From positions 1 to 24,807 of the IMG/VR virus record IMGVR_UViG_3300004278_000017: DNA of 24,807 nt; one strand, written 5' to 3'. Positions within the stretch are counted from its first letter, which is position 1, and every line of letters starts with the position of its first letter. The notes below the pieces were generated by a model. The model was given only the letters and a program-made list of their open reading frames with translations, searched no databases and was not told the origin of the DNA. Of this stretch, positions 2 to 22,581 are shown in pieces. The position numbers and the translations under genes were made by a program. Source of the DNA: a virus.

Positions 2-2797
2 GTCGGTTCCGCTGAAGGTGCAGCTCGTATAGTTGGTGGTAGCGATATCTCACAACAATCTTACGATAGAGCAAAGACAGACTTAGCGATTAAGCATGCG
101 TTCCTGAAGTTTGTCAGCGATGTTAAAGTGTTTATAGATGGTTCACCTCTTACGCAACCGCCTGAAGTGTCATTCGAAGAATATGCAAAACGCATACAAG
201 ATGACACAGACTGGAGAGAAGCAAAATTAGCTGACCTCCGCGAAATGTTTAAAGATACCACAGGCCGAAGAGAAGCACAATTAGCTGACCTCCGCGAAAT
301 GTTTACGGGTGTGTGGGCTATGTTTAGTGACTCTCCACAAACAGCTGAAGAGTCGTTGATGCTCGCTGAGAGAGAGTTAGTCTCAGTGAACACGGCTCTA
401 ACGACAGCTACAGATGATAATAGAGATACTCTGGAGCGGACTGCGAGCAGCTTGACAAGCAGTATCGCAGCATTGAAAAGTGTCATCAACGCTGCTAGAG
501 TTGAGCGCCGCGAAGATGCTGCAGCTGGCGCCAATATGTATGAGAAACTCGGCAACTTTCTCACACCTGCCTGGTTTGACACACAATATCGAGAGCAGGG
601 TAAAGTCATTGCAGATGCTGTACTCGAGACCGGTATAGCGCGATCAAAAGCTATCGTCGAGTTTGTGGAAAGGGACATTTGGGGTGACCGAAGTAAAAAA
701 CCTATAGAGAGAGCTTCAGGTGGCCCTGTTTGGGGCTCCGGAACAGCCACTAGTGACTCCATACCTGCGCTGCTGTCCAACGGCGAATATGTGATCAACG
801 CCGAATCGACGAAAAGACATAGGGGTGTGCTGGAAGCTATTAATAGTAAAAAGCCGACAGGGATTATGGGATTTTCTGAAGGGGGTCTCATCGCTAAAGG
901 CTCTGACGGTCCCGTTAAAGGTGATAATACGATTTTAGGCTTTATAAGCCGAGGCTTTGAAGCTTTGACTGATCGTCATGAATTCGCTGAAGCTATAGGT
1001 CTACGATTCCAAGAACTAAAGATCCGACTAGAACGTAGCTGGATTCCAGGCACTAAGGCTGCCGGCGATGGTTTTAACGATATAGGTCAAGAATTAGGAG
1101 ACCCATTGAGGCATGCGTGGGCTTCAGCTGCTGTTACCTTAAACTACGGCGAAGATTTTGCATTGATTGTGGGTGACCTGCACGAGCTCGACAACATGTT
1201 AGGTCCTGAAAATTTAAACTTCTTAGATCTACTTAGTGGCCTCGAGATCACTGAATCCAATCGTCAAGACTTTATAAATAACGCAGTGGGCCGAAAAGTC
1301 GGCAAGTCCTCTGGAGATGTTGTGTCTGCTTGGGACCAAATTGTGGGTCTTTTGCAGGATGATTTGTACTCAGGCAACATGAATAACTTCATGGTAGGTC
1401 ATTGGGGTTCGACTCGTGGTGACTTACCTGAAGGCGACCAGAGACTTTACGCGATAAACTCGTTGGAACGACTCAAACAGCACCCAGTGCTTAGACACCA
1501 CCTCAGCAAATATGCCGACGGAGGTCTCGCTTCAATGGGGCGCGACGGTGATTCAATGCTGGCCCACATCAATCCCGCTGAGGCCGACTTGTTGAAAGCC
1601 TTCGGAGGCTCCGGAACGGTTAACCCTCGGACAGGTCTGAGAGAGTTCAGCAACCTTGAATTGGGTAAGGACTTGAAGGACGAGACAGAGAAATCTGTGG
1701 AGGTCACTGAAACTCTCCTTGAGAAGATAATTGCTATGTTCAAAGAACTCTTCGCTGAACTCAAAAAGGGTTTTAAAGGTGTATTCGGAGACTCCGACGA
1801 CGATACTACAAAAGTTAAAACTTTCAGCAAAAGCGTAGAAGCTTCAAAGATACCTTGGGCCCAAACCAATATAAACTACAATAGTGTGGTGGATCAGTTG
1901 GAGGATCGCACCGTCAAGTCTTTCGAGAACTTCTCGATGGCAGACTTGGATAGAGTGAATAATCTCTTCGACAGAATAGGCGAGTGGAAAACGACCTTGA
2001 CCGATGAGACTGCTTCGGTGGCCAGCAAGTCCAGAGCGAAAGAGCAGATCAAGACACTGTTCGGTGAGGTGGATAAGATCAGCGAGATGTACGTCGCATT
2101 AGGGGACGCTGAATGGATGTCAAACGTGGAGAATCCAGCTTTCGTCAAGATCGGTGAAGAGTTCGCCGAAGGTGTGGAGTCTGACTTTAAAACAGGACTA
2201 TCCTCGCTGCTCCACGGAAAATCCGACTTTAAAGAGTTTACGACCGGCATCCTCGACAACTTCACGAGTAACATCATCGACACCTTCGTGGGTGGCTTCA
2301 CCGACTCCCTTTTCAAAAGTTCGAGTCTGGACGAAGGAATGGAGAGCTTAGGTTCAGGTCTGGCAAGTTGGAGTAGCTCCTTGTTTGACGGCATCGACAT
2401 CAGCAGTATATTCAAAAGCAGTTGGGGTTGGGTGAAGGGTCTCTTCTCTGGGTATGCGGACGGTGGTTACGTCTCAGGGCCGGGAACGGGTACGAGCGAC
2501 TCGATTCCAGCGAGACTCAGCGACGGTGAGTTCGTCGTCAATGCGGCGGCCACCAGAGCGAATTTAGGGATGCTTCAAGCTATCAACAGCGGCAGTATGC
2601 GCAGGTTCGCTGTGGGTGGTTTGGCCACAAATCTGGCACCTGTGAACACGAATGCAAGTGTCCCTCAATCCACCGTAGTCAACTTAAACATAACAGGTGA
2701 CGTCAGTCGCCAAACCAAGAAGGAGATTTATTCTATGGCCCCACAAATAGCTTCAATGGTCGAAGGTAACTTCAGAGAAAGGAGAGTGATGCGATGA
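2..2797 (+). CDS. Tail tape measure protein, C-terminal part (5' end outside window)
   Basis: The frame is open from the first bases of the window, so the 931 visible residues are the C-terminal part of a longer protein; the GTG at 128 need not be a start. Tape measure proteins fill the tail tube and set tail length. Supporting features are the great length, a helical charged stretch at about 330-520, and glycine-rich segments carrying the phrase TSDSIPALLSNGEYVIN (from 719) and its near copy TSDSIPARLSDGEFVVN (from 2462), a motif I recognise from tape measure proteins; a degenerate third copy starts near 1520. An 18-codon unit is duplicated in tandem at 200-307. The gene lies directly before tail-tip genes, the normal siphovirus order, and its stop overlaps the next start (ATGATG). 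The family call is strong; the role of the glycine-rich segments is not known to me. Confidence 0.88.
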   Translation, partial: VGSAEGAARIVGGSDISQQSYDRAKTDLAIKHAFLKFVSDVKVFIDGSPLTQPPEVSFEEYAKRIQDDTDWREAKLADLREMFKDTTGRREAQLADLREMFTGVWAMFSDSPQTAEESLMLAERELVSVNTALTTATDDNRDTLERTASSLTSSIAALKSVINAARVERREDAAAGANMYEKLGNFLTPAWFDTQYREQGKVIADAVLETGIARSKAIVEFVERDIWGDRSKKPIERASGGPVWGSGTATSDSIPALLSNGEYVINAESTKRHRGVLEAINSKKPTGIMGFSEGGLIAKGSDGPVKGDNTILGFISRGFEALTDRHEFAEAIGLRFQELKIRLERSWIPGTKAAGDGFNDIGQELGDPLRHAWASAAVTLNYGEDFALIVGDLHELDNMLGPENLNFLDLLSGLEITESNRQDFINNAVGRKVGKSSGDVVSAWDQIVGLLQDDLYSGNMNNFMVGHWGSTRGDLPEGDQRLYAINSLERLKQHPVLRHHLSKYADGGLASMGRDGDSMLAHINPAEADLLKAFGGSGTVNPRTGLREFSNLELGKDLKDETEKSVEVTETLLEKIIAMFKELFAELKKGFKGVFGDSDDDTTKVKTFSKSVEASKIPWAQTNINYNSVVDQLEDRTVKSFENFSMADLDRVNNLFDRIGEWKTTLTDETASVASKSRAKEQIKTLFGEVDKISEMYVALGDAEWMSNVENPAFVKIGEEFAEGVESDFKTGLSSLLHGKSDFKEFTTGILDNFTSNIIDTFVGGFTDSLFKSSSLDEGMESLGSGLASWSSSLFDGIDISSIFKSSWGWVKGLFSGYADGGYVSGPGTGTSDSIPARLSDGEFVVNAAATRANLGMLQAINSGSMRRFAVGGLATNLAPVNTNASVPQSTVVNLNITGDVSRQTKKEIYSMAPQIASMVEGNFRERRVMR
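200..307 (+). repeat. Tandem 54-bp duplication inside the tape measure gene
   Basis: Two adjacent in-frame units of 54 bp, 200-253 and 254-307. Over 36 bp (215-250 versus 269-304) they differ at one base; the first 15 bp of each unit are more diverged. The encoded 18-residue unit shares REAKLADLREMF / REAQLADLREMF. Each is amphipathic and probably helical. Confidence 0.9.
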
Positions 2798-3399: not shown

Positions 3400-3950
3400 T
3401 GTTGACTTTAGATCTGGACCTCGTCGGTGTCCTCAACAACCGAAGCACTTCCTACTTCCTCCTGCTCAAATTCGCATTCAATTCAGGTACCGTTGGTGTG
3501 ACCAACGCACCCAGAGATGTGACTCACGATGGATTGACTTACTCTGCCTCAGGTGGTTTGAAGTCGCTCACACCTCCCAAAGCTGAAGCTGGTGTATCCA
3601 GAGACATTTTCGGTGTAAACTTAACCGATGTTGATTTCGCTTTCAGAGACTTGCTGGATTCGGAGCCCACCGGTGTGCCTGTGGAAGTCATATCCAGATT
3701 TGAAACAACGGCGGGCGATCGTGATCTCAAGATATACACAGGAACCGTCAGCAGCTTCTCCACCGAAATAGAGAGTGATGAACATCTCATCAGCGTGCAG
3801 TGTGTGGGTCCCATAACCAAGCTTCAGCAGGTGACGAATCGTGTCACGACTGATGCCAGTCAGCAAGCAGCCCATCCAGGAGACACATCTATGAGTAAGT
3901 CGTTCGACACAGAAAATGAGGCAGAGATTAAGTGGGGTGGTAACTCATGA
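3399..3950 (+). CDS. Tail-tip assembly protein, DUF2163-like
   Basis: A 183-residue protein whose start overlaps the previous stop (TAATG), as in a tightly coupled tail operon. The N-terminal part (about residues 20-75), with a phrase like DGLTYSASGGLK followed by a region describing surface/derivative-like beta strands, resembles the N-terminal domain of DUF2163 / phage BR0599-type proteins, found between tape measure and tip protein in siphoviruses and gene transfer agents. It is shorter than typical DUF2163 proteins (about 270 residues as I recall), and no cysteine peptidase follows. Its likely role is as a structural piece of the tail tip joining the tube to the hub. The family assignment is from recall of motif style, not a search. 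Confidence 0.55.
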   Translation: MLTLDLDLVGVLNNRSTSYFLLLKFAFNSGTVGVTNAPRDVTHDGLTYSASGGLKSLTPPKAEAGVSRDIFGVNLTDVDFAFRDLLDSEPTGVPVEVISRFETTAGDRDLKIYTGTVSSFSTEIESDEHLISVQCVGPITKLQQVTNRVTTDASQQAAHPGDTSMSKSFDTENEAEIKWGGNS

Positions 3951-6664
3951 TACATATAAATTACATCTTCAGGTTCTCACCTGTGTACACCATAGTGAAG
4001 TGGTTCTCGTACCCACTGTACACCTCTTGGATTTTCTCAGCCATTATGACGGTCGGATCTTTCCTTTACCAACGAAAGAGACAGAAAGAAATGGAGGCGA
4101 AGCAACGTCAAGCCGCTGAAGCCGCCAAAGACAGAGCCGCCACCAAATTGGTCCGTGTGTCGGGTTCCAACCAACCGATACTGATCGCGTATGGTTACAA
4201 CAGAGTGGGAGGGACCAACGTCTTCACAGATGTCTCTTCCAGTTTTTCTTCTGCTGCAGCCAACGCCAACGAGGAGATCTTCGGAAGCCTGAGTAGTTTC
4301 TCGGGGAGTAAGAACGAGACGCTGATCACTCAGGCTGTGATATGTGCCGATGAAGTGGACGACATTGTGTGGGTCGAGATCAACGATGAAGATCACGACA
4401 ACTCAGACTACGGGGGTTGGGCTAAGCTCTACATCAACAAGAAGGGCGGTTTGATCTCCAACTCTTCGACGTTGTCCAGAGAAGCCTCAGCGGTGTTCAA
4501 CGATGTTTGTTACTCCACAAGTTTCTTCAGAATGAACAGAGATGAACCTCAATTCAGCGGCAAGCCTTCGACAAGCTTCTATCTTAAAGGGCGCAAGATA
4601 CGGACATTCGACGGCTCTGGCGTATTGAGCACAACAGCAACATTCTCAAACAACGCCATAGAAGTGCTGCTCGACTACTTCACAGAGCAACCTTTCGGTC
4701 CTAAAATCTCCGACACCGAGTTAGACTTGACAACTTTCGCGACGGCGGCCGCTCTCTCAGGAGAGGCTCCCAGAGGCTCTGTTGCCGTGAATGGTAAGGT
4801 GTACGACAAAGCAGGTGTGAGCTCCAGATCGTTGCTGAGACACGAGTTTAACGGAGTCTTGAAGCCAGACTCGGATCATGTGGCTAACATAGAGAGTATC
4901 TTAGAGGGTGTGCCTGGGTTGATCATCTACAGAAGCATCGAGGGTCAGTTGAAGGTGTCCTTACCTGACACATCTTTAACTGAAGCCTCAGCATCCGTCG
5001 GAGAAGTCACAGACTCGCTACTCGGTTCCGACATCGACTATCAAATACCAGACACGAATGACAAACTTAACGCGGTGAGTCTGTCTTATGTGAACAGCGG
5101 AAAAGATTTCGCGGAAGATACCTACGAGTTTGATTCGTCGAGCCTTCTGGCTAACGATCACGGCATAAAGTTATCTTCCTCAGTATCCCCTGCAGGTGTC
5201 TCCAACGTCTACCAAGCTGAGGCGATAGCTAAAGCGACGGTCAACGAGTCCAGACTGGCCTCCTTCACCTTCACAATCAACTTAGGTAGCTTGGGTAACG
5301 GCCGAAGCTCTCTAGAGCTGGAGCCCGGTGATGTGATCCACCTGAACAGTCATCGAAACAAGATAGACACGTACGTACGTATAAGTGCCATCGACATAAC
5401 GCCCGACATGGCGTTGAAGATCGACGCGTTGGCGTACACAGCTGAAGCTTACGAGTTCAACTCGGTGGAGGTTGAGACACCGCAACTCAGAACCTCTGTG
5501 GATATGTCAGTCACTCCACCCTCCAATGTGGACATAGAGAGTATCACAGATCCAGATTCCTTGTATAACACAATAAAGGTGACTTGGACAGATGCTGATG
5601 ATGTGCAGGTGTACGAGTACTTAGTGCAAGCAGGGACTGTACAGGCCGACGCTTCCATCGTGTGGGGTACAGCTGGTGTGGTTCCTTTCGGCACGGAGAT
5701 ATTCGAGCATTTCCCCAATCAAGTTGCGACCTATAAGTACCGAGTTAGAGGCAGGACGCGTCTCGGGCGTATGTCTCCTTGGGTGACTTCGGCTTCAGGT
5801 GGCTACATCGGTAAGCAGCAGATTCTGGGCGGTTTCTCCATTCAGGTATCTCGATCGAATTTCATGGTGAAGAAGTCGCTGGCCGACGGAACCATCACAC
5901 CCACATCTGACACCTCAGAGATTCAATTATGGTCAGGTGGTGTTCTGTCGACATTGAGCACAGGTGCAGGTGATGTCCTCGCGGGTGAGTGGCGGATAAC
6001 CTCCGCTGCTTCCGGTGACGTGGACGGGGTGGCTTGGTCTTCCGTACTCACTTCAGACAAGGCAACATACACCCTCAACTTCTCAGCGGCTTTGACCTCG
6101 GCCATAGTTCCTGTGACTCTTGTGTATAATGGAACGATCGATGGATTGCCGTTGGGTGATGCTGGTTTGTCCACCTTCGAGAAGAGTTTTTATGTGGAAG
6201 CCTTGTCGGACGGTGTGATGGGTGAAGATGGCGCGGCCGGTGTGCGCGGAGCAGGTTGGCACAGATTCGTGACGCTCAATACACAAGTTGAGTTGGATGC
6301 ACTGACCTCTGGAGCTTTGTCGATTGAATTCCAAAACGGTTTTGGTTCAGCTCCCGTAGCTTTCGACAGAATGATTCTTTCGGGTATCGACGGTGCTGTC
6401 AAGGCTTGGGTGTTTGATGGAAGCACTTGGAGCAGCCAAGCTGAATTTATAGATGGTAACTTGCTGGTGGCAGGTACAGTGAACGCCGACTCTTTGAGTG
6501 TGGTCAACACCGCCAGTGGATTTCAAGCATCTATAGATGAGAACGGTTTAGTGCTCAGAAGTGCGGACGCAGGTAACGCGCGACTGGAGATCCTTGAGAA
6601 CGTCATAAAAGTCTTCGACGACAATAATGTCCTGAGAGTCAAGATAGGAGACCTGTCTGCGTAA
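3947..6664 (+). CDS. Tail tip / central hub-fibre protein, lambda J-like
   Basis: A 905-residue protein starting at ATG 3947, overlapping the previous stop by 4 bases, with GGGGTGG just upstream as a possible SD. Residues about 13-41 form a hydrophobic stretch followed by a basic, Gln/Glu/Ala-rich helix, as in the N-termini of J-like hubs. The next approximately 450 residues look like the hub (tail protein) domains, including a phrase of the type 'NNAIEVLLDYFTEQPFGPKI' that matches the J-family region where a Tyr-Gly segment precedes a helix. A fibronectin type III-like domain spans about 520-620. Four Gly-X-Y triplets (about 756-767) form a short collagen-like link. The end (ENVIKVFDDNNVLRVKIGDL) is typical of J-family C-termini. 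It probably contacts the host receptor, so it would determine host range. It is last in the tail operon and followed at once by a terminator. Confidence 0.82.
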   Translation: MIHINYIFRFSPVYTIVKWFSYPLYTSWIFSAIMTVGSFLYQRKRQKEMEAKQRQAAEAAKDRAATKLVRVSGSNQPILIAYGYNRVGGTNVFTDVSSSFSSAAANANEEIFGSLSSFSGSKNETLITQAVICADEVDDIVWVEINDEDHDNSDYGGWAKLYINKKGGLISNSSTLSREASAVFNDVCYSTSFFRMNRDEPQFSGKPSTSFYLKGRKIRTFDGSGVLSTTATFSNNAIEVLLDYFTEQPFGPKISDTELDLTTFATAAALSGEAPRGSVAVNGKVYDKAGVSSRSLLRHEFNGVLKPDSDHVANIESILEGVPGLIIYRSIEGQLKVSLPDTSLTEASASVGEVTDSLLGSDIDYQIPDTNDKLNAVSLSYVNSGKDFAEDTYEFDSSSLLANDHGIKLSSSVSPAGVSNVYQAEAIAKATVNESRLASFTFTINLGSLGNGRSSLELEPGDVIHLNSHRNKIDTYVRISAIDITPDMALKIDALAYTAEAYEFNSVEVETPQLRTSVDMSVTPPSNVDIESITDPDSLYNTIKVTWTDADDVQVYEYLVQAGTVQADASIVWGTAGVVPFGTEIFEHFPNQVATYKYRVRGRTRLGRMSPWVTSASGGYIGKQQILGGFSIQVSRSNFMVKKSLADGTITPTSDTSEIQLWSGGVLSTLSTGAGDVLAGEWRITSAASGDVDGVAWSSVLTSDKATYTLNFSAALTSAIVPVTLVYNGTIDGLPLGDAGLSTFEKSFYVEALSDGVMGEDGAAGVRGAGWHRFVTLNTQVELDALTSGALSIEFQNGFGSAPVAFDRMILSGIDGAVKAWVFDGSTWSSQAEFIDGNLLVAGTVNADSLSVVNTASGFQASIDENGLVLRSADAGNARLEILENVIKVFDDNNVLRVKIGDLSA

Positions 6665-6676
6665 CTAGTATTAATT

Positions 6677-6704
6677 AAAAGCCCCTCACAATCGAGGGGC
6701 TTTT
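6677..6704 (+). terminator. Rho-independent terminator after the tail operon
   Basis: A perfect 11-bp stem AAAAGCCCCTC / GAGGGGCTTTT with a 6-base loop (6688-6693) and a run of T. It begins 13 bases after the tip-protein stop. Because the stem is A-rich on one side and T-rich on the other, it could also work on the opposite strand, but no gene points that way. Confidence 0.93.
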
Positions 6705-6712
6705 AAACGCAA
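6701..6712 (+). repeat. Post-terminator motif TTTTAAACGCAA, copy 1
   Basis: The 12-mer, plus the preceding C, is found identically after three terminators in this window (also 19618-19629 and 22570-22581). It begins in the T-run and continues eight bases past it. Function unknown. Confidence 0.85.
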
Positions 6713-6740
6713 AACGGTGTAAATGAAACTGCGGAAATAT

Positions 6741-6801: not shown

Positions 6802-7122
6802 ATGAAAAAATTAGCAATTGTTTTGCTGGCTGTCTCATTGTTTGTTGCGTTCATGCAACAGTCTATTGCTTCCGAAGGGTTCGCTCTTATGACCTTTGAC
6901 GAAGTGGTACTCACGTTCCAAGAGATCTCCGAACCTCTTGACGAATACACGACTGCGTATATGGAGTCCAGAGTGCGATTTGTCGCGTGTGACACAGGAG
7001 CTAAAGAGGTGTTAGATTCGCTTGGTATGTCAGCTATATGGCTTTACAGCTTCAGTGATGGTACGTCCATCACAATAGCCACTGACAAGCTCTCTTGTGG
7101 GAAAGATGGAGAGTGGACATAG
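6802..7122 (+). CDS. Exported small protein with a cysteine pair (paralog A)
   Basis: A 106-residue protein starting at ATG 6802, with SD AAAAAGGA at 6785-6792. Residues 1-24 are a textbook signal peptide (MKKL, hydrophobic core, then SIAS as a likely cleavage site), so the mature protein should be periplasmic or secreted. It has two cysteines, Cys63 and Cys99, that could form a disulphide. The segment between them aligns without gaps to the next gene's product, which has the same 36-residue cysteine spacing and a shared DGTS. I do not recognise the family. It is the first gene of a cassette fenced by terminators, so it is separately controlled from tail and replication genes. Possible roles, all speculative: superinfection exclusion, envelope modification or help in lysis. 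Confidence 0.85.
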   Translation: MKKLAIVLLAVSLFVAFMQQSIASEGFALMTFDEVVLTFQEISEPLDEYTTAYMESRVRFVACDTGAKEVLDSLGMSAIWLYSFSDGTSITIATDKLSCGKDGEWT

Positions 7123-7168
7123 AAGTGATCAGTTCGATCGCTTTGTAATTTTAAGAAGGAGTTACTGT

Positions 7169-7426
7169 ATGCATAATAAAGTATTGGTGTTGGTCTTGGG
7201 TTGTATGCTTACGTTGCCGGCATCTGCAAAAGACACGCTCAACGTAGTGATAAGTGTACCAGCGGGGGACTTACAGAGAGCCACACAGGCTCTGAAGACG
7301 AATGCCTGCTTTTTTAATACAAAGCAGATAATCAATCTCTTGGTGGACGAGGTCGTATACTCGATAACCTCAGAGGATGGTACATCCGTAGAAGTCTATT
7401 TAACTGAATTGATTTGTGAACTATAA
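7169..7426 (+). CDS. Exported small protein with a cysteine pair (paralog B)
   Basis: An 85-residue protein. ATG 7169 is chosen over earlier in-frame starts because of SD AAGAAGGAG at 7153-7161. The N-terminus has a short hydrophobic core followed by LPASA-KD, a good signal peptidase I site. A possible lipobox (VLGC, Cys12) leaves open that it is a lipoprotein. Cys47 and Cys83 are 36 residues apart, exactly as in the gene before it, and the 37-residue span between and including them shares Lys, Leu, the DGTS block and the cysteines (9 identical positions). Its unknown function should be close to that of its neighbour. Expression is likely coupled to 6802, 46 bases away. Confidence 0.82.
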   Translation: MHNKVLVLVLGCMLTLPASAKDTLNVVISVPAGDLQRATQALKTNACFFNTKQIINLLVDEVVYSITSEDGTSVEVYLTELICEL

Positions 7427-7438
7427 AAAGGAAATATT

Positions 7439-7738
7439 ATGTCGAATAAAAAGCGTGGGTTCGGTAAGAAGCGTGTGACTGGCAGAAAGCGTAAACCTAA
7501 AAAAGAGTCTGAGCTAATAGAGTGGTCGTACTCTACACCTACTCTCAATTTCAAGAAAGCTGAGACGCGTGTTCGTCAGTCTGCAGCTTACTTGAAAGTG
7601 GGTGAATTGGTGGGAGAAGTCTCAACATCATTAGCCTCTATGGATAAGGCTTCGCGACTTGCCTTTATAATAAAGTCGTATTATTTTAGATATCTTCTAA
7701 GAAAACTGAATAAATTAGAGAGGTCTATAACTACTTAA
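7439..7738 (+). CDS. Very basic small protein, unknown function
   Basis: A 99-residue protein starting at ATG 7439, with SD AAAAAGGA at 7425-7432. The leader AAGGAAATATTAT is shared with the gene at 21941. The first 24 residues are about half Lys/Arg, after which the protein continues with predicted helices (about 45-95). The basic tail suggests binding to nucleic acid or to acidic phospholipid, but no domain is recognisable. It is the third gene of the terminator-bounded cassette and has no signal peptide, unlike the two genes before it. Confidence 0.75.
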   Translation: MSNKKRGFGKKRVTGRKRKPKKESELIEWSYSTPTLNFKKAETRVRQSAAYLKVGELVGEVSTSLASMDKASRLAFIIKSYYFRYLLRKLNKLERSITT

Positions 7739-7748
7739 GGGGTTGACT

Positions 7749-7880
7749 ATGTGGCATGTAATATTATACGAAGTATTGGAGCACTTGAAAGTGCCCATAG
7801 CTATAGCATTATATGCAATATTGTTGGCCGTTGTCGGGGCGATGACAATCCCCGTTCTTTCGTGGCTACTACATCTATGA
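7749..7880 (+). CDS. 43-residue membrane protein
   Basis: An ORF starting at ATG 7749, with SD AAGGGG at 7737-7742 and spacing of 6 bases. The product begins MWHVILYEVLEHLKVP and then has one long hydrophobic stretch (about residues 16-42) ending in LLHL, so it is almost entirely a membrane segment with a short N-terminal amphipathic head. The stop at 7880 runs directly into a terminator, making it the last gene of the cassette. Small size and a single span would suit a regulator of membrane function or a holin-like/antiholin peptide, but no lytic enzyme lies nearby, so I do not assign one. A frame one step away (GTG 7751) is also open but lacks its own SD and reads through the terminator. 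Confidence 0.7.
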   Translation: MWHVILYEVLEHLKVPIAIALYAILLAVVGAMTIPVLSWLLHL

Positions 7881-7885
7881 ATTTC

Positions 7886-7907
7886 CCCCTCCTTCGGGAG
7901 GGGTTTT
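7886..7907 (+). terminator. Rho-independent terminator with UUCG tetraloop
   Basis: Stem CCCCTCC (7886-7892) / GGAGGGG (7897-7903) capped by TTCG, i.e. a c(UUCG)g tetraloop, then TTTT. It separates the small cassette from the replication region. Confidence 0.92.
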
Positions 7908-8068: not shown

Positions 8069-8094
8069 TTTAACCCTGAGCCCTTCCCTATATA
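8065..8094 (+). promoter_or_regulatory. Probable host sigma-70-type promoter for the phage RNA polymerase gene
   Basis: TTGATT (8065-8070), an 18-base spacer, and TATATA (8089-8094). In T7-like phages the polymerase gene must be read by host RNA polymerase, so a host-type promoter is expected here. The match is good but not perfect (-35 TTGACA, -10 TATAAT). Confidence 0.5.
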
Positions 8095-8123
8095 TGATCT
8101 ATGATTTACAAAAGATCATATAT
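8090..8123. promoter_or_regulatory. 11-bp inverted repeat, possible operator
   Basis: ATATATGATCT (8090-8100) and AGATCATATAT (8113-8123) are perfect inverted copies around a 12-base spacer. The left arm covers the putative -10 box. This geometry suits a repressor dimer or a hairpin in the 5' leader of the polymerase message. Confidence 0.55.
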
Positions 8124-8176
8124 CGGGCAGTTGCCCAGATGTGCCTTCCACAATAATTGTAACTGGAGGTTATGAG

Positions 8177-10375
8177 ATGAGAAGTAAATTAAAAAGATCC
8201 TTAAAAAGGAGGATTGATCTAGAGATAAGCGGCAACCACAAGATCAATTTCTTAAAGCAAGTCGATGTGGATAAGATATTGGATGAGGCCATAATCCCTG
8301 TCGCATACCTATACACAAGAGATCTGCGAGGTGAGTCTGATATCTACTTTATAGATCTGGTGTCCGCCATGGGCGCCAGAGCTATGAAGATCTGTGGACA
8401 ATCCAAGAACACAGTGACCGCCGTGCGCTTGGGGAGTTTCTTGCTGTACTCTTTGGAAGAGATGGAGTTGATGGCGGCTTACAAGGGTTCAAACACGCGA
8501 AGCAGACATGCTTGCTACAAAATAGAAGTCACCAATGATCGAGCCATCACCAAGCTGTGGAAAAATTTGAAGTTGGAGCCGAACGGTAAACTGCCGAGTA
8601 GTGAACCTTATGATGCGTGGTCTTGCGGTAGACACTCGTCGGGTATGCCTCTCATAAAGTCACTGCACCCCAATCTTCTGGACGAGATGTACATAAAGAC
8701 TCAACCCAAAGTGTTTGGTCTGGTCAACAAGCTTCAAGAGATTGGCTGGAACATAAATAAAGACATACTGGAGTTGCAGATATGGGCTTTCGAATACGAA
8801 GAAGAAGCGTTCTCAGGTGTGTGGAGAGCTCCTTCCAGTCAGGCCAAAGACTCCAAATTGAGAGAGTCTGAAGCTATTCTCAACATGGCCCAGAGATTTG
8901 AAGATAGCGAGTTTTACCACTTATACTCTTATGACTTCAGAGGTCGTGTGTATCCCACAACAGCTTACTTACACGAGCAGGGACATGACCAATCCAAAGG
9001 TCTGTTGCTGAGAGCGAGCCGCCAAAAGATAAGTGAGAGAGGTCTCTATTGGCTCTTGATAAATATGGCGAACTTATGGGGCGGTGACACAGGTGATGGG
9101 CGAAAGACCGACAAGATCCACTTAGACGACAGGGCTCAATGGTCTTTAGATAATGAAGACAGCTTCGTCAAGTACGCCGCCGACCCGCGTGTGAATAAAG
9201 GTTGGATGGTGGCTGACAAGCCTTGGCAATTCTTAGCCAACTGTATCGAGCTGTGCAAATTCAGGGAAGATCCTGAGTATGCTTCAGGTCTGTTAGTGTG
9301 GATAGACGGCTCCAATAATGGAGCCCAGCACCTCTGTGCACTCTCCAAAGATGAAACTACTGCACCGTACGTGAATCTGACCAAGACTGAAGAACCTGGA
9401 GATCTCTACCGCTTCGTTTCCGATACTGTGTGGGCTTCGGTCGACAAAGATCTTATGGAGCTGGAAGACAGAGAAGAGACGGAGATCTTCGTGGACCGAG
9501 CTATCGCCGTGAAGAAGTCAATTCGCGACTCTGAGCCTCGAAGTGAAGAACGGAAACGCTACGCAGAAGAGCTCAAAGTCCTGAAGGCCTCCAACAAACA
9601 CTTACTGGATCAAGCGATGCCGGTGTTTTGGAGCAGGATCACGCATCAAGGAGACCGACGTAAGATATGTAAGCGAGGAGTTATGACTCTCCCATACGGG
9701 GGTACGCCTTACGGTCTAGGTGAGCAGATCATAAAAGACGCGTCTAAACATGGAATCGAGATTTTGAACTACATGGAGCACAGATGGGGTGCTTGGTTGG
9801 GTAGGCTCATATACAGCAGTTGTGGTTCAGCGTTGAAGCGACCTATGCAACTGCTCAAGAAGTTCGAAGAGGCCGGTAAGCTGGCTGAAGAGGACGGCAG
9901 ATTCTTGGAGTGGACCTCACAGGCAACTGGGTTTCCTTGTGTGCAATATTACATACACGGAAATGTCAGAAAGGTCTGGGCACAATATGGTGAACCCTCC
10001 GGTCCCAAGAAGAGCACAGGCTACTACGAGAACACACTACAGTTGAGTGTGAGCTGTCTGGAGGAGCCTGTTATGAGCCCCAAGAAGCAGGCACAAGGCG
10101 CTGCACCTAACATCATACATAGTTTGGATGCTGCCCATCTCTCCCTAGTCGTCAATGCTTGCGACTTCCCTGTGACGACTGTTCATGATTCTTTTGGCTG
10201 TCTGCCTGAAGATATGGATGATCTGTACAATGAAACTCGTACGCAGTTCGCCACACTGTATATGGGCGATCCTTTGGGAAGTCTAATGCGTGAGACAGGT
10301 CAGACTCTTGAAGGTCTAGATTTGGGCACATTCAGCATATTCGAGGTTTTGGAATCGGAGTACGCATTCTCATGA
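8177..10375 (+). CDS. T7-like single-subunit DNA-directed RNA polymerase
   Basis: A 732-residue protein. The start is ATG 8177 with SD TGGAGGT (8164-8170); a GTG 12 codons earlier has no SD. It transcribes phage genes from phage promoters. Catalytic motifs are clear: motif A WIDGSNNGAQH with Asp377 (T7 Asp537), motif B KRGVMTLPYG with Lys499 and Tyr507 (T7 Lys631, Tyr639), and motif C VHDSFG with Asp671 (T7 Asp812). The C-terminus YAFS resembles the T7 FAFA foot. The region before motif A is about 160 residues shorter than in T7, so the promoter-binding N-terminal domain must be reduced, while the part after it is of normal size. It is the first gene of the replication block, behind a host-type promoter and an inverted repeat. 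The next gene starts within its stop. Confidence 0.97.
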   Translation: MRSKLKRSLKRRIDLEISGNHKINFLKQVDVDKILDEAIIPVAYLYTRDLRGESDIYFIDLVSAMGARAMKICGQSKNTVTAVRLGSFLLYSLEEMELMAAYKGSNTRSRHACYKIEVTNDRAITKLWKNLKLEPNGKLPSSEPYDAWSCGRHSSGMPLIKSLHPNLLDEMYIKTQPKVFGLVNKLQEIGWNINKDILELQIWAFEYEEEAFSGVWRAPSSQAKDSKLRESEAILNMAQRFEDSEFYHLYSYDFRGRVYPTTAYLHEQGHDQSKGLLLRASRQKISERGLYWLLINMANLWGGDTGDGRKTDKIHLDDRAQWSLDNEDSFVKYAADPRVNKGWMVADKPWQFLANCIELCKFREDPEYASGLLVWIDGSNNGAQHLCALSKDETTAPYVNLTKTEEPGDLYRFVSDTVWASVDKDLMELEDREETEIFVDRAIAVKKSIRDSEPRSEERKRYAEELKVLKASNKHLLDQAMPVFWSRITHQGDRRKICKRGVMTLPYGGTPYGLGEQIIKDASKHGIEILNYMEHRWGAWLGRLIYSSCGSALKRPMQLLKKFEEAGKLAEEDGRFLEWTSQATGFPCVQYYIHGNVRKVWAQYGEPSGPKKSTGYYENTLQLSVSCLEEPVMSPKKQAQGAAPNIIHSLDAAHLSLVVNACDFPVTTVHDSFGCLPEDMDDLYNETRTQFATLYMGDPLGSLMRETGQTLEGLDLGTFSIFEVLESEYAFS

Positions 10376-19589: not shown

Positions 19590-19621
19590 AAAGACCGAAG
19601 ACTTACAAGCTTCGGTCTTTT
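19590..19621 (+). terminator. Rho-independent terminator after the reductase gene
   Basis: A perfect 11-bp stem AAAGACCGAAG (19590-19600) / CTTCGGTCTTT (19610-19620) with a 9-base loop and a T-run. Confidence 0.9.
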
Positions 19622-19629
19622 AAACGCAA
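19618..19629 (+). repeat. Post-terminator motif TTTTAAACGCAA, copy 2
   Basis: Identical to copies at 6701 and 22570, including the preceding C. Here it runs directly into the SD (ATGGAGA) of the gene at 19644. Confidence 0.85.
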
Positions 19630-19643
19630 ATGGAGAATTTTGA

Positions 19644-22537: not shown

Positions 22538-22573
22538 GCCTCGTAGATTCTGAAAAGAGTTTGCGGGGCTTTT
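22538..22573 (+). terminator. Rho-independent terminator with GAAA tetraloop
   Basis: Left arm 22538-22551 (starts GCCTCGTAG) pairs along its full 14 bases with 22556-22569 (ends GCGGGGC), counting G-T wobbles, around a GAAA loop, then TTTT. A 6-bp inverted repeat TGTCAG/CTGACA (22506-22533) lies just upstream. Confidence 0.82.
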
Positions 22574-22581
22574 AAACGCAA
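22570..22581 (+). repeat. Post-terminator motif TTTTAAACGCAA, copy 3
   Basis: Identical to the copies at 6701 and 19618, including the preceding C, and again followed by a TGGAGA SD. Confidence 0.85.

What the first reader, a model, noticed from the sequence alone, without database searches (positions are those of the whole stretch)
6802..7426. Two adjacent exported proteins are probable paralogs with identical cysteine spacing
Both products begin with a signal peptide and carry two cysteines in the mature part. Cys63-Cys99 in the first and Cys47-Cys83 in the second are each exactly 36 residues apart, and the 37-residue span aligns with no gap: nine identical positions including a DGTS block, plus several conservative ones. 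This suggests a tandem duplication and a disulphide-linked fold exported to the periplasm. The pair lies in a cassette closed by terminators on both sides, outside the tail and replication operons, a setting typical of accessory genes. I recognise no known family. A two-component envelope system (exclusion, receptor masking, lysis control) is speculation.
Basis: partly seen in the sequence, partly recalled or inferred. Interest (0 to 1): 0.68.

Follow-up and report, generated by a model that had tools for sequence, protein, structure and literature searches.

The report
Twin exported phage proteins, function unknown
A tailed phage carries two neighbouring small genes, probably copies of one ancestor, whose products are likely sent to the space between the bacterium's membranes; they resemble nothing in the databases searched and most plausibly stop a second phage from infecting the same cell, but no function has been shown.

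Summary
Two signal-peptide proteins (6802-7122, 106 aa; 7169-7426, 85 aa) each carry two mature cysteines exactly 36 residues apart, with nine identities in 37 ungapped positions and a shared DGTS. Paralogy is likely but not proven: with the cysteines held fixed, 6 of 400,000 shuffles score as well, yet the plain BLASTP score is only the second best of 435 protein pairs in the window. No relative was found in any collection searched, so conservation cannot be tested. The pair lies in a four-gene cassette between two terminators, directly downstream of the tail-tip J gene and upstream of a T7-type RNA polymerase. In 11 of 36 related phages that upstream slot holds other small exported proteins; the equivalent stretch downstream never does. 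Low-confidence models share helix(Cys)-helix-hairpin(DGTS)-Cys. The nearest solved folds are AspS-family secretin pilotins (Z about 5), whose disulphide spans 37 residues; sequence tests do not support membership. Best reading: periplasmic superinfection-exclusion proteins working like Llp/Cor/Rtp45 but not lipoproteins (confidence about 0.4). Lysis control is the main rival, because relatives can carry endolysins in the same slot.

The parts
6802..7122 (+). exported protein 1 (106 aa); signal peptide about residues 1-23, mature Cys63 and Cys99
6988..7098 (+). Cys63-Cys99 core of protein 1 (DGTS at 7057-7068)
7122..7144 (+). stem-loop between the two genes, weak terminator or attenuator (9 pairs, z -3.4)
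7169..7426 (+). exported protein 2 (85 aa); signal peptide about residues 1-20 (ASA/KD), mature Cys47 and Cys83
7307..7417 (+). Cys47-Cys83 core of protein 2 (DGTS at 7376-7387)
7439..7738 (+). 99-aa basic protein of the same cassette; no family match. A small basic or hydrophilic ORF occupies a similar place in several relatives, without detectable sequence similarity
7749..7880 (+). 43-aa protein with one predicted membrane span; short single-span ORFs lie just upstream of the polymerase in many relatives, without detectable sequence similarity
6675..6706 (+). intrinsic terminator after the J gene, upstream border of the cassette
   Evidence: -21.2 kcal/mol, z -7.2
7886..7903 (+). intrinsic terminator, downstream border of the cassette
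3947..6664 (+). J-like tail-tip protein, upstream neighbour
8174..10375 (+). T7-type RNA polymerase, downstream neighbour (start at ATG 8174 with a ribosome-binding site preferred over GTG 8141)

Best explanation
The two genes encode small soluble periplasmic proteins that probably arose by tandem duplication. Each folds into a compact domain: a helix ending in the first Cys, a second helix, a beta hairpin turning at DGTS, and the second Cys closing a disulphide. They are made inside the infected cell from a separate transcription unit next to the tail-tip (receptor-recognition) gene, and most likely act as superinfection-exclusion factors: from the periplasm they bind the phage's outer-membrane receptor or its partner and lock it in a form the tail tip cannot use. 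This is how Llp (on FhuA) and Rtp45 (on LptDE) work, except that these two are probably not lipid-anchored. Shown: the genes, the Cys spacing, the cassette borders, the position, and the absence of relatives in the collections searched. Inferred: export and cleavage, the disulphide, the fold, paralogy. Not shown: receptor binding or exclusion.
For: Position directly downstream of the J-like gene, the place T5 llp takes next to its receptor-binding gene (PMC9586334). Small size, signal peptide and one Cys pair, as in Llp (Cys11-Cys58) and Rtp45 (Cys30-Cys38, PMC12685063). Own unit between terminators. No virion or enzyme family match. No relative in the collections searched, as expected of fast-changing receptor-directed factors, though also of any orphan gene. 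In 11 of 36 non-redundant polymerase relatives, small ORFs that pass a crude signal-peptide test lie in the 2.5 kb upstream of the polymerase, against none in the 2.5 kb downstream (Fisher p about 4e-4).
Against: No similarity to any family of PHROGs or PADLOC at a meaningful E-value. Llp, Cor and Rtp45 are lipoproteins; here protein 1 has no lipobox and the only N-terminal Cys of protein 2 is at position 12, outside the usual 15-35. The same slot in some relatives holds endolysins, so it may be a lysis region. Two paralogous exclusion proteins in one phage would be unusual. Host and receptor are unknown. The 11 of 36 count rests on a crude predictor and some of its hits may be membrane proteins.
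Confidence: 0.4

Rival explanations
1. Lysis control: the pair are periplasmic regulators of lysis (RI-like antiholins or endolysin inhibitors/activators) in a cassette that also holds a short single-span protein, possibly a small holin.
For: In several relatives the stretch upstream of the polymerase holds predicted lysis genes, e.g. an endolysin-type cell-wall hydrolase in L032 (PHROG endolysin E 9e-19) and look-alikes in L065, L081, L087 and others. The cassette ends with a 43-aa single-span protein. T4 RI is a disulphide-bearing periplasmic lysis regulator (own knowledge).
Against: No endolysin, holin or spanin family match for any cassette protein. Short single-span ORFs stand next to the polymerase even where lysis genes lie elsewhere or are not seen. 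The Cys spacing differs from RI.
Confidence: 0.25
2. Spackle-like inhibition: the pair bind and inhibit the cell-wall-degrading tail enzyme of incoming phage, so that exclusion acts at DNA entry and not at the receptor.
For: T4 gp61.3 is a 97-aa exported phage protein with a 22-residue signal and one Cys pair (Cys29-Cys81) that blocks the gp5 lysozyme (PMC7650644).
Against: Spackle is all-helical, while both models here contain a beta hairpin (low confidence). No tail lysozyme was identified in the window.
Confidence: 0.12
3. Pilotin mimic: the pair have the AspS/PA3611 fold and act on a secretin used as phage receptor, or on another outer-membrane multimer.
For: Best solved folds for the protein 2 model are EpsS 6i2v (Z 5.2; Foldseek prob 0.90, TM 0.59) and AspS 4ftf (Z 5.1; prob 0.72), with 5zdh and PA3611 3npd lower in the list. 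AspS has a disulphide Cys74-Cys111 (PMC3542185) and all 46 family members fetched keep a 37-residue spacing. A global profile alignment puts both Cys in register. The lytic phage VP2 uses the secretin EpsD as receptor (PMC8101328).
Against: Z 5 from a model of pLDDT 60 is within the range of common arrangements. The protein 1 model gives nothing. Sequence tests are at shuffle level (z 1.0 and 1.5 against at least 5.7 for true members; hhalign E 0.73). The spacing is 36, not 37. PF16549 does not match.
Confidence: 0.12
4. The two proteins are not paralogues: two unrelated small exported proteins that resemble each other by chance, each with its own role.
For: The BLASTP score is only the second best of 435 window pairs; 26% identity over 38 residues; no family to anchor either.
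Against: Exact Cys register plus ungapped core: 6 of 400,000 anchored shuffles. Adjacent genes, both with signal peptides; same predicted element order.
Confidence: 0.11

Closest known systems
T5 Llp, T1-type Cor and Rtp45 superinfection-exclusion lipoproteins
   Same: small exported phage proteins with one disulphide; T5 llp lies adjacent and downstream of the receptor-binding gene
   Different: those are lipoproteins with other Cys spacings (Llp 47, Rtp45 8); no sequence similarity found; here two copies
AspS (T2SSS_2, PF16549) and PA3611 secretin-pilotin fold
   Same: predicted order helix(Cys)-helix-strand-strand-Cys and nearly equal Cys spacing (36 against 37); PA3611 is also described as periplasmic and not a lipoprotein
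   Different: no profile or sequence support; N-terminal helix 1 and strands 1-2 absent; low-confidence model only; bacterial, not phage, proteins
T4 Spackle gp61.3
   Same: about 100-aa exported phage protein with a single Cys pair acting in the periplasm
   Different: all-helical fold, Cys spacing 52, single copy

Membership tests
AspS / T2SSS_2 pilotin (PF16549) | match to the family profile | tested here: not met
   No Pfam match up to E 10, none in the window record; own profile and anchored scores at shuffle level
AspS / T2SSS_2 pilotin (PF16549) | Cys pair 37 residues apart (kept in all 46 members fetched) | tested here: not met
   36 in both proteins, one residue short
AspS / T2SSS_2 pilotin (PF16549) | AspS fold | tested here: inconclusive
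   protein 2 Z 5.1-5.2 from a pLDDT-60 model; protein 1 no match in the list
AspS / T2SSS_2 pilotin (PF16549) | lipoprotein signal peptide | tested here: not met
   no lipobox Cys at 15-35 in either protein; PA3611, the structural homologue, also lacks it
AspS / T2SSS_2 pilotin (PF16549) | binds the secretin S-domain | not testable with these tools
   needs binding assays
Llp/Cor/Rtp45 exclusion lipoproteins | gene next to the receptor-binding tail gene | tested here: met
   137 bp after the end of the J-like gene, same strand; that J binds the receptor here is assumed
Llp/Cor/Rtp45 exclusion lipoproteins | lipid anchor | tested here: not met
   protein 1 none; protein 2 only C12 inside a short signal peptide
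Llp/Cor/Rtp45 exclusion lipoproteins | one intramolecular disulphide | tested here: inconclusive
   two mature Cys in each protein; bond not demonstrated
Llp/Cor/Rtp45 exclusion lipoproteins | sequence similarity to the family | tested here: inconclusive
   no PHROGs family better than E 0.23; the families were not compared one to one
Llp/Cor/Rtp45 exclusion lipoproteins | blocks superinfection | not testable with these tools
   needs phage plating
T4 Spackle | all-helical fold | tested here: inconclusive
   both models contain a beta hairpin, but at low confidence
T4 RI antiholin | periplasmic domain that binds the holin | not tested
   no holin identified in the window

The most novel reading that the evidence does not exclude
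A duplicated, phage-encoded miniature of the bacterial secretin-pilotin fold (AspS/PA3611 type) that binds an outer-membrane secretin from the periplasm and switches it off as a phage receptor: a non-lipoprotein kind of superinfection exclusion aimed at a secretion channel.
Probability: 0.1. Interest if true: 0.75.

Novelty: new variant of a known kind. Interest (0 to 1): 0.38.

Why it matters
If the pair are exclusion factors, they would widen a group known from a few coliphage lipoproteins to soluble, duplicated proteins, and the host receptor could be found by pull-down. The slot between the tail-tip gene and the polymerase in this group of phages looks like a place where unrelated exported proteins are swapped, a source of untested envelope-acting proteins. 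If the pilotin-like fold is right, a phage has taken up a secretin-handling fold.

Tried and rejected
Searches for relatives of either protein, all negative: viral contigs, phage records (14, 15, 43, 44), whole records of the closest relatives (36, 37), all ORFs of about 100 fetched loci (68, 73; best E 0.14), species genomes (86), Pfam, PHROGs, PADLOC, NCBIfam, PDB sequences. PHROG 17571 (E 0.23) and ZapA (E 0.1) for protein 2 are chance level and were set aside. Viral structure library: protein 2 has two unnamed hits at prob 0.99 but E 0.02, not interpretable; protein 1 nothing. AspS membership by sequence was tried three ways and failed. Known exclusion folds (Llp, Rtp45, Spackle) did not appear among the fold-search rows, which excludes nothing. 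The T5 record was not held, so Llp could not be compared directly. Reading protein 2 as a lipoprotein (C12) was considered and judged unlikely: only 11 residues precede the Cys and a good type I site (ASA/KD) follows. Repeat searches for a phage promoter shared by the cassette found only a motif after terminators.

Full report
CHECK. Both reading frames exist at the given coordinates, follow good ribosome-binding sites and begin with signal peptides. Protein 1 (106 aa) has Cys63 and Cys99, protein 2 (85 aa) Cys47 and Cys83, each 36 apart. The 37-residue spans align without a gap, 9 identities including DGTS. BLASTP of the two gives E 8e-4, shuffles 1.5e-4 to 3e-4, Cys-anchored shuffles 6 of 400,000. 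Against this, in an all-against-all comparison of 30 window proteins the pair ranks second of 435. Paralogy is therefore likely, resting on adjacency, shared export signal and exact cysteine register together, and I put it at about 0.85.

SURROUNDINGS. The window is a 24.8-kb record of a tailed phage with tape-measure, distal tail and J-like genes, then a T7-type RNA polymerase, DNA polymerase, primase-helicase, ribonucleotide reductase and ligase. Between J and the polymerase lies a cassette of four genes: the pair, a 99-aa basic protein and a 43-aa protein with one membrane span. Strong terminators close it on both sides (6675-6706; 7886-7903), and a weaker stem-loop (7122-7144) separates the two exported genes and could lower expression of the second. 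Its G+C (0.40-0.46) is lower than that of J (0.51) or the polymerase (0.48).

RELATIVES. No relative of either protein was found anywhere. The neighbourhood was therefore followed through its conserved genes: 80 polymerase relatives, 41-53% identical apart from L002, which is the same phage or a near-identical one. In 11 of 36 non-redundant relatives, small ORFs that pass a crude signal-peptide test lie within 2.5 kb upstream of the polymerase, and in none within 2.5 kb downstream (p about 4e-4). They are not similar to the pair. Four of them, about 100-115 aa with two cysteines about 58-65 apart (L032, L039, L043, L065), look like another exported family. Some relatives also have endolysin-type hydrolases there. 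The place is thus one for exported and lysis-related genes, and the actual proteins change.

FOLD. AlphaFold2 with only the pair as alignment gives low confidence (mean pLDDT 60 and 53). Protein 2: strand 23-30, helix 35-48 ending at Cys47, helix 51-58, strands 61-68 and 73-77 around DGTS, then Cys83. Protein 1: helix 48-64 with Cys63, helix 67-74, strands 79-83 and 89-93, then Cys99. The order agrees, but the models are not independent. For protein 2 the best solved structures are the AspS-family secretin pilotins EpsS 6i2v (Z 5.2, rmsd 3.6, 69 residues) and AspS 4ftf (Z 5.1, rmsd 4.7, 68 residues); Foldseek gives them the highest TM-scores of its list, prob 0.90 and 0.72, though E-values of 0.45 and 1.1. 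AspS has a conserved disulphide Cys74-Cys111 between helix 2 and the C-terminal helix, shared with PA3611, a periplasmic protein without a lipobox (PMC3542185). I fetched 46 family members: all keep the 37 spacing. The resemblance in topology and spacing is notable, but the sequence tests fail: profile score with Cys-fixed shuffles p 0.11 and 0.34, anchored alignment z 1.5 and 1.0 against 5.7 or more for true members, hhalign E 0.73. Protein 1 gives no such match. I do not file the pair under this family.

MECHANISM. The anatomy (signal peptide, one Cys pair, gene next to the tail-tip gene, own transcription unit, lineage-specific sequence) fits periplasmic superinfection exclusion best. T5 Llp lies next to its receptor-binding gene, carries Cys11-Cys58 and jams FhuA from the periplasm (PMC9586334). 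Rtp45 (Cys30-Cys38) does so with LptDE (PMC12685063). Both are lipoproteins; this pair very probably is not. T4 Spackle is a soluble exported exclusion protein with one Cys pair (PMC7650644), so lack of a lipid anchor is no bar. A secretin can be a receptor of a lytic phage (VP2 on EpsD, PMC8101328), which makes a pilotin-like blocker conceivable. Lysis control is the main rival because of the gene slot. None of these functions is shown.

VERDICT. A correct observation of a probable tandem pair of orphan exported phage proteins. Its closest functional parallel is known exclusion proteins; membership in any family is not established.

Noticed in passing
window 6694-6713, 19612-19630, 22561-22580: Three places end a G+C-rich stretch (hairpins at least at the first two) with the same tail, CTTTTAAACGCAAA or near it, directly before the next gene; perhaps a terminator or promoter element of this phage's own polymerase.
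   Followed up: partly
window 8086-8127: Inverted repeat ATATATGATC...GATCATATAT just upstream of the RNA polymerase gene (z -4.3), a candidate operator or regulatory hairpin.
   Followed up: partly
L015 1086-4193, L091 9565-12512, L094 10001-12971, L093 10001-12766, L098 3154-6124: RNA polymerase genes of relatives are split by inserts of roughly 0.5-0.8 kb, several at the conserved MTLPYGG motif and several holding an ORF that looks like an HNH endonuclease: probable self-splicing introns.
   Followed up: partly
L032 8764-9108, L039 671-1018, L043 8597-8899, L065 7984-8301: A different exported family with two cysteines about 58-65 residues apart, about 1-1.4 kb upstream of the polymerase in relatives; no clear PHROG match.
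   Followed up: partly
window 7749-7880; L013 200-328; L014 1982-2101; L028 4785-4937: Short proteins with one membrane span stand directly before the polymerase gene in many relatives, conserved in place but not detectably in sequence.
   Followed up: partly
window 198-305: A 54-base direct tandem repeat (89% identical) inside the tape-measure gene.
   Followed up: no
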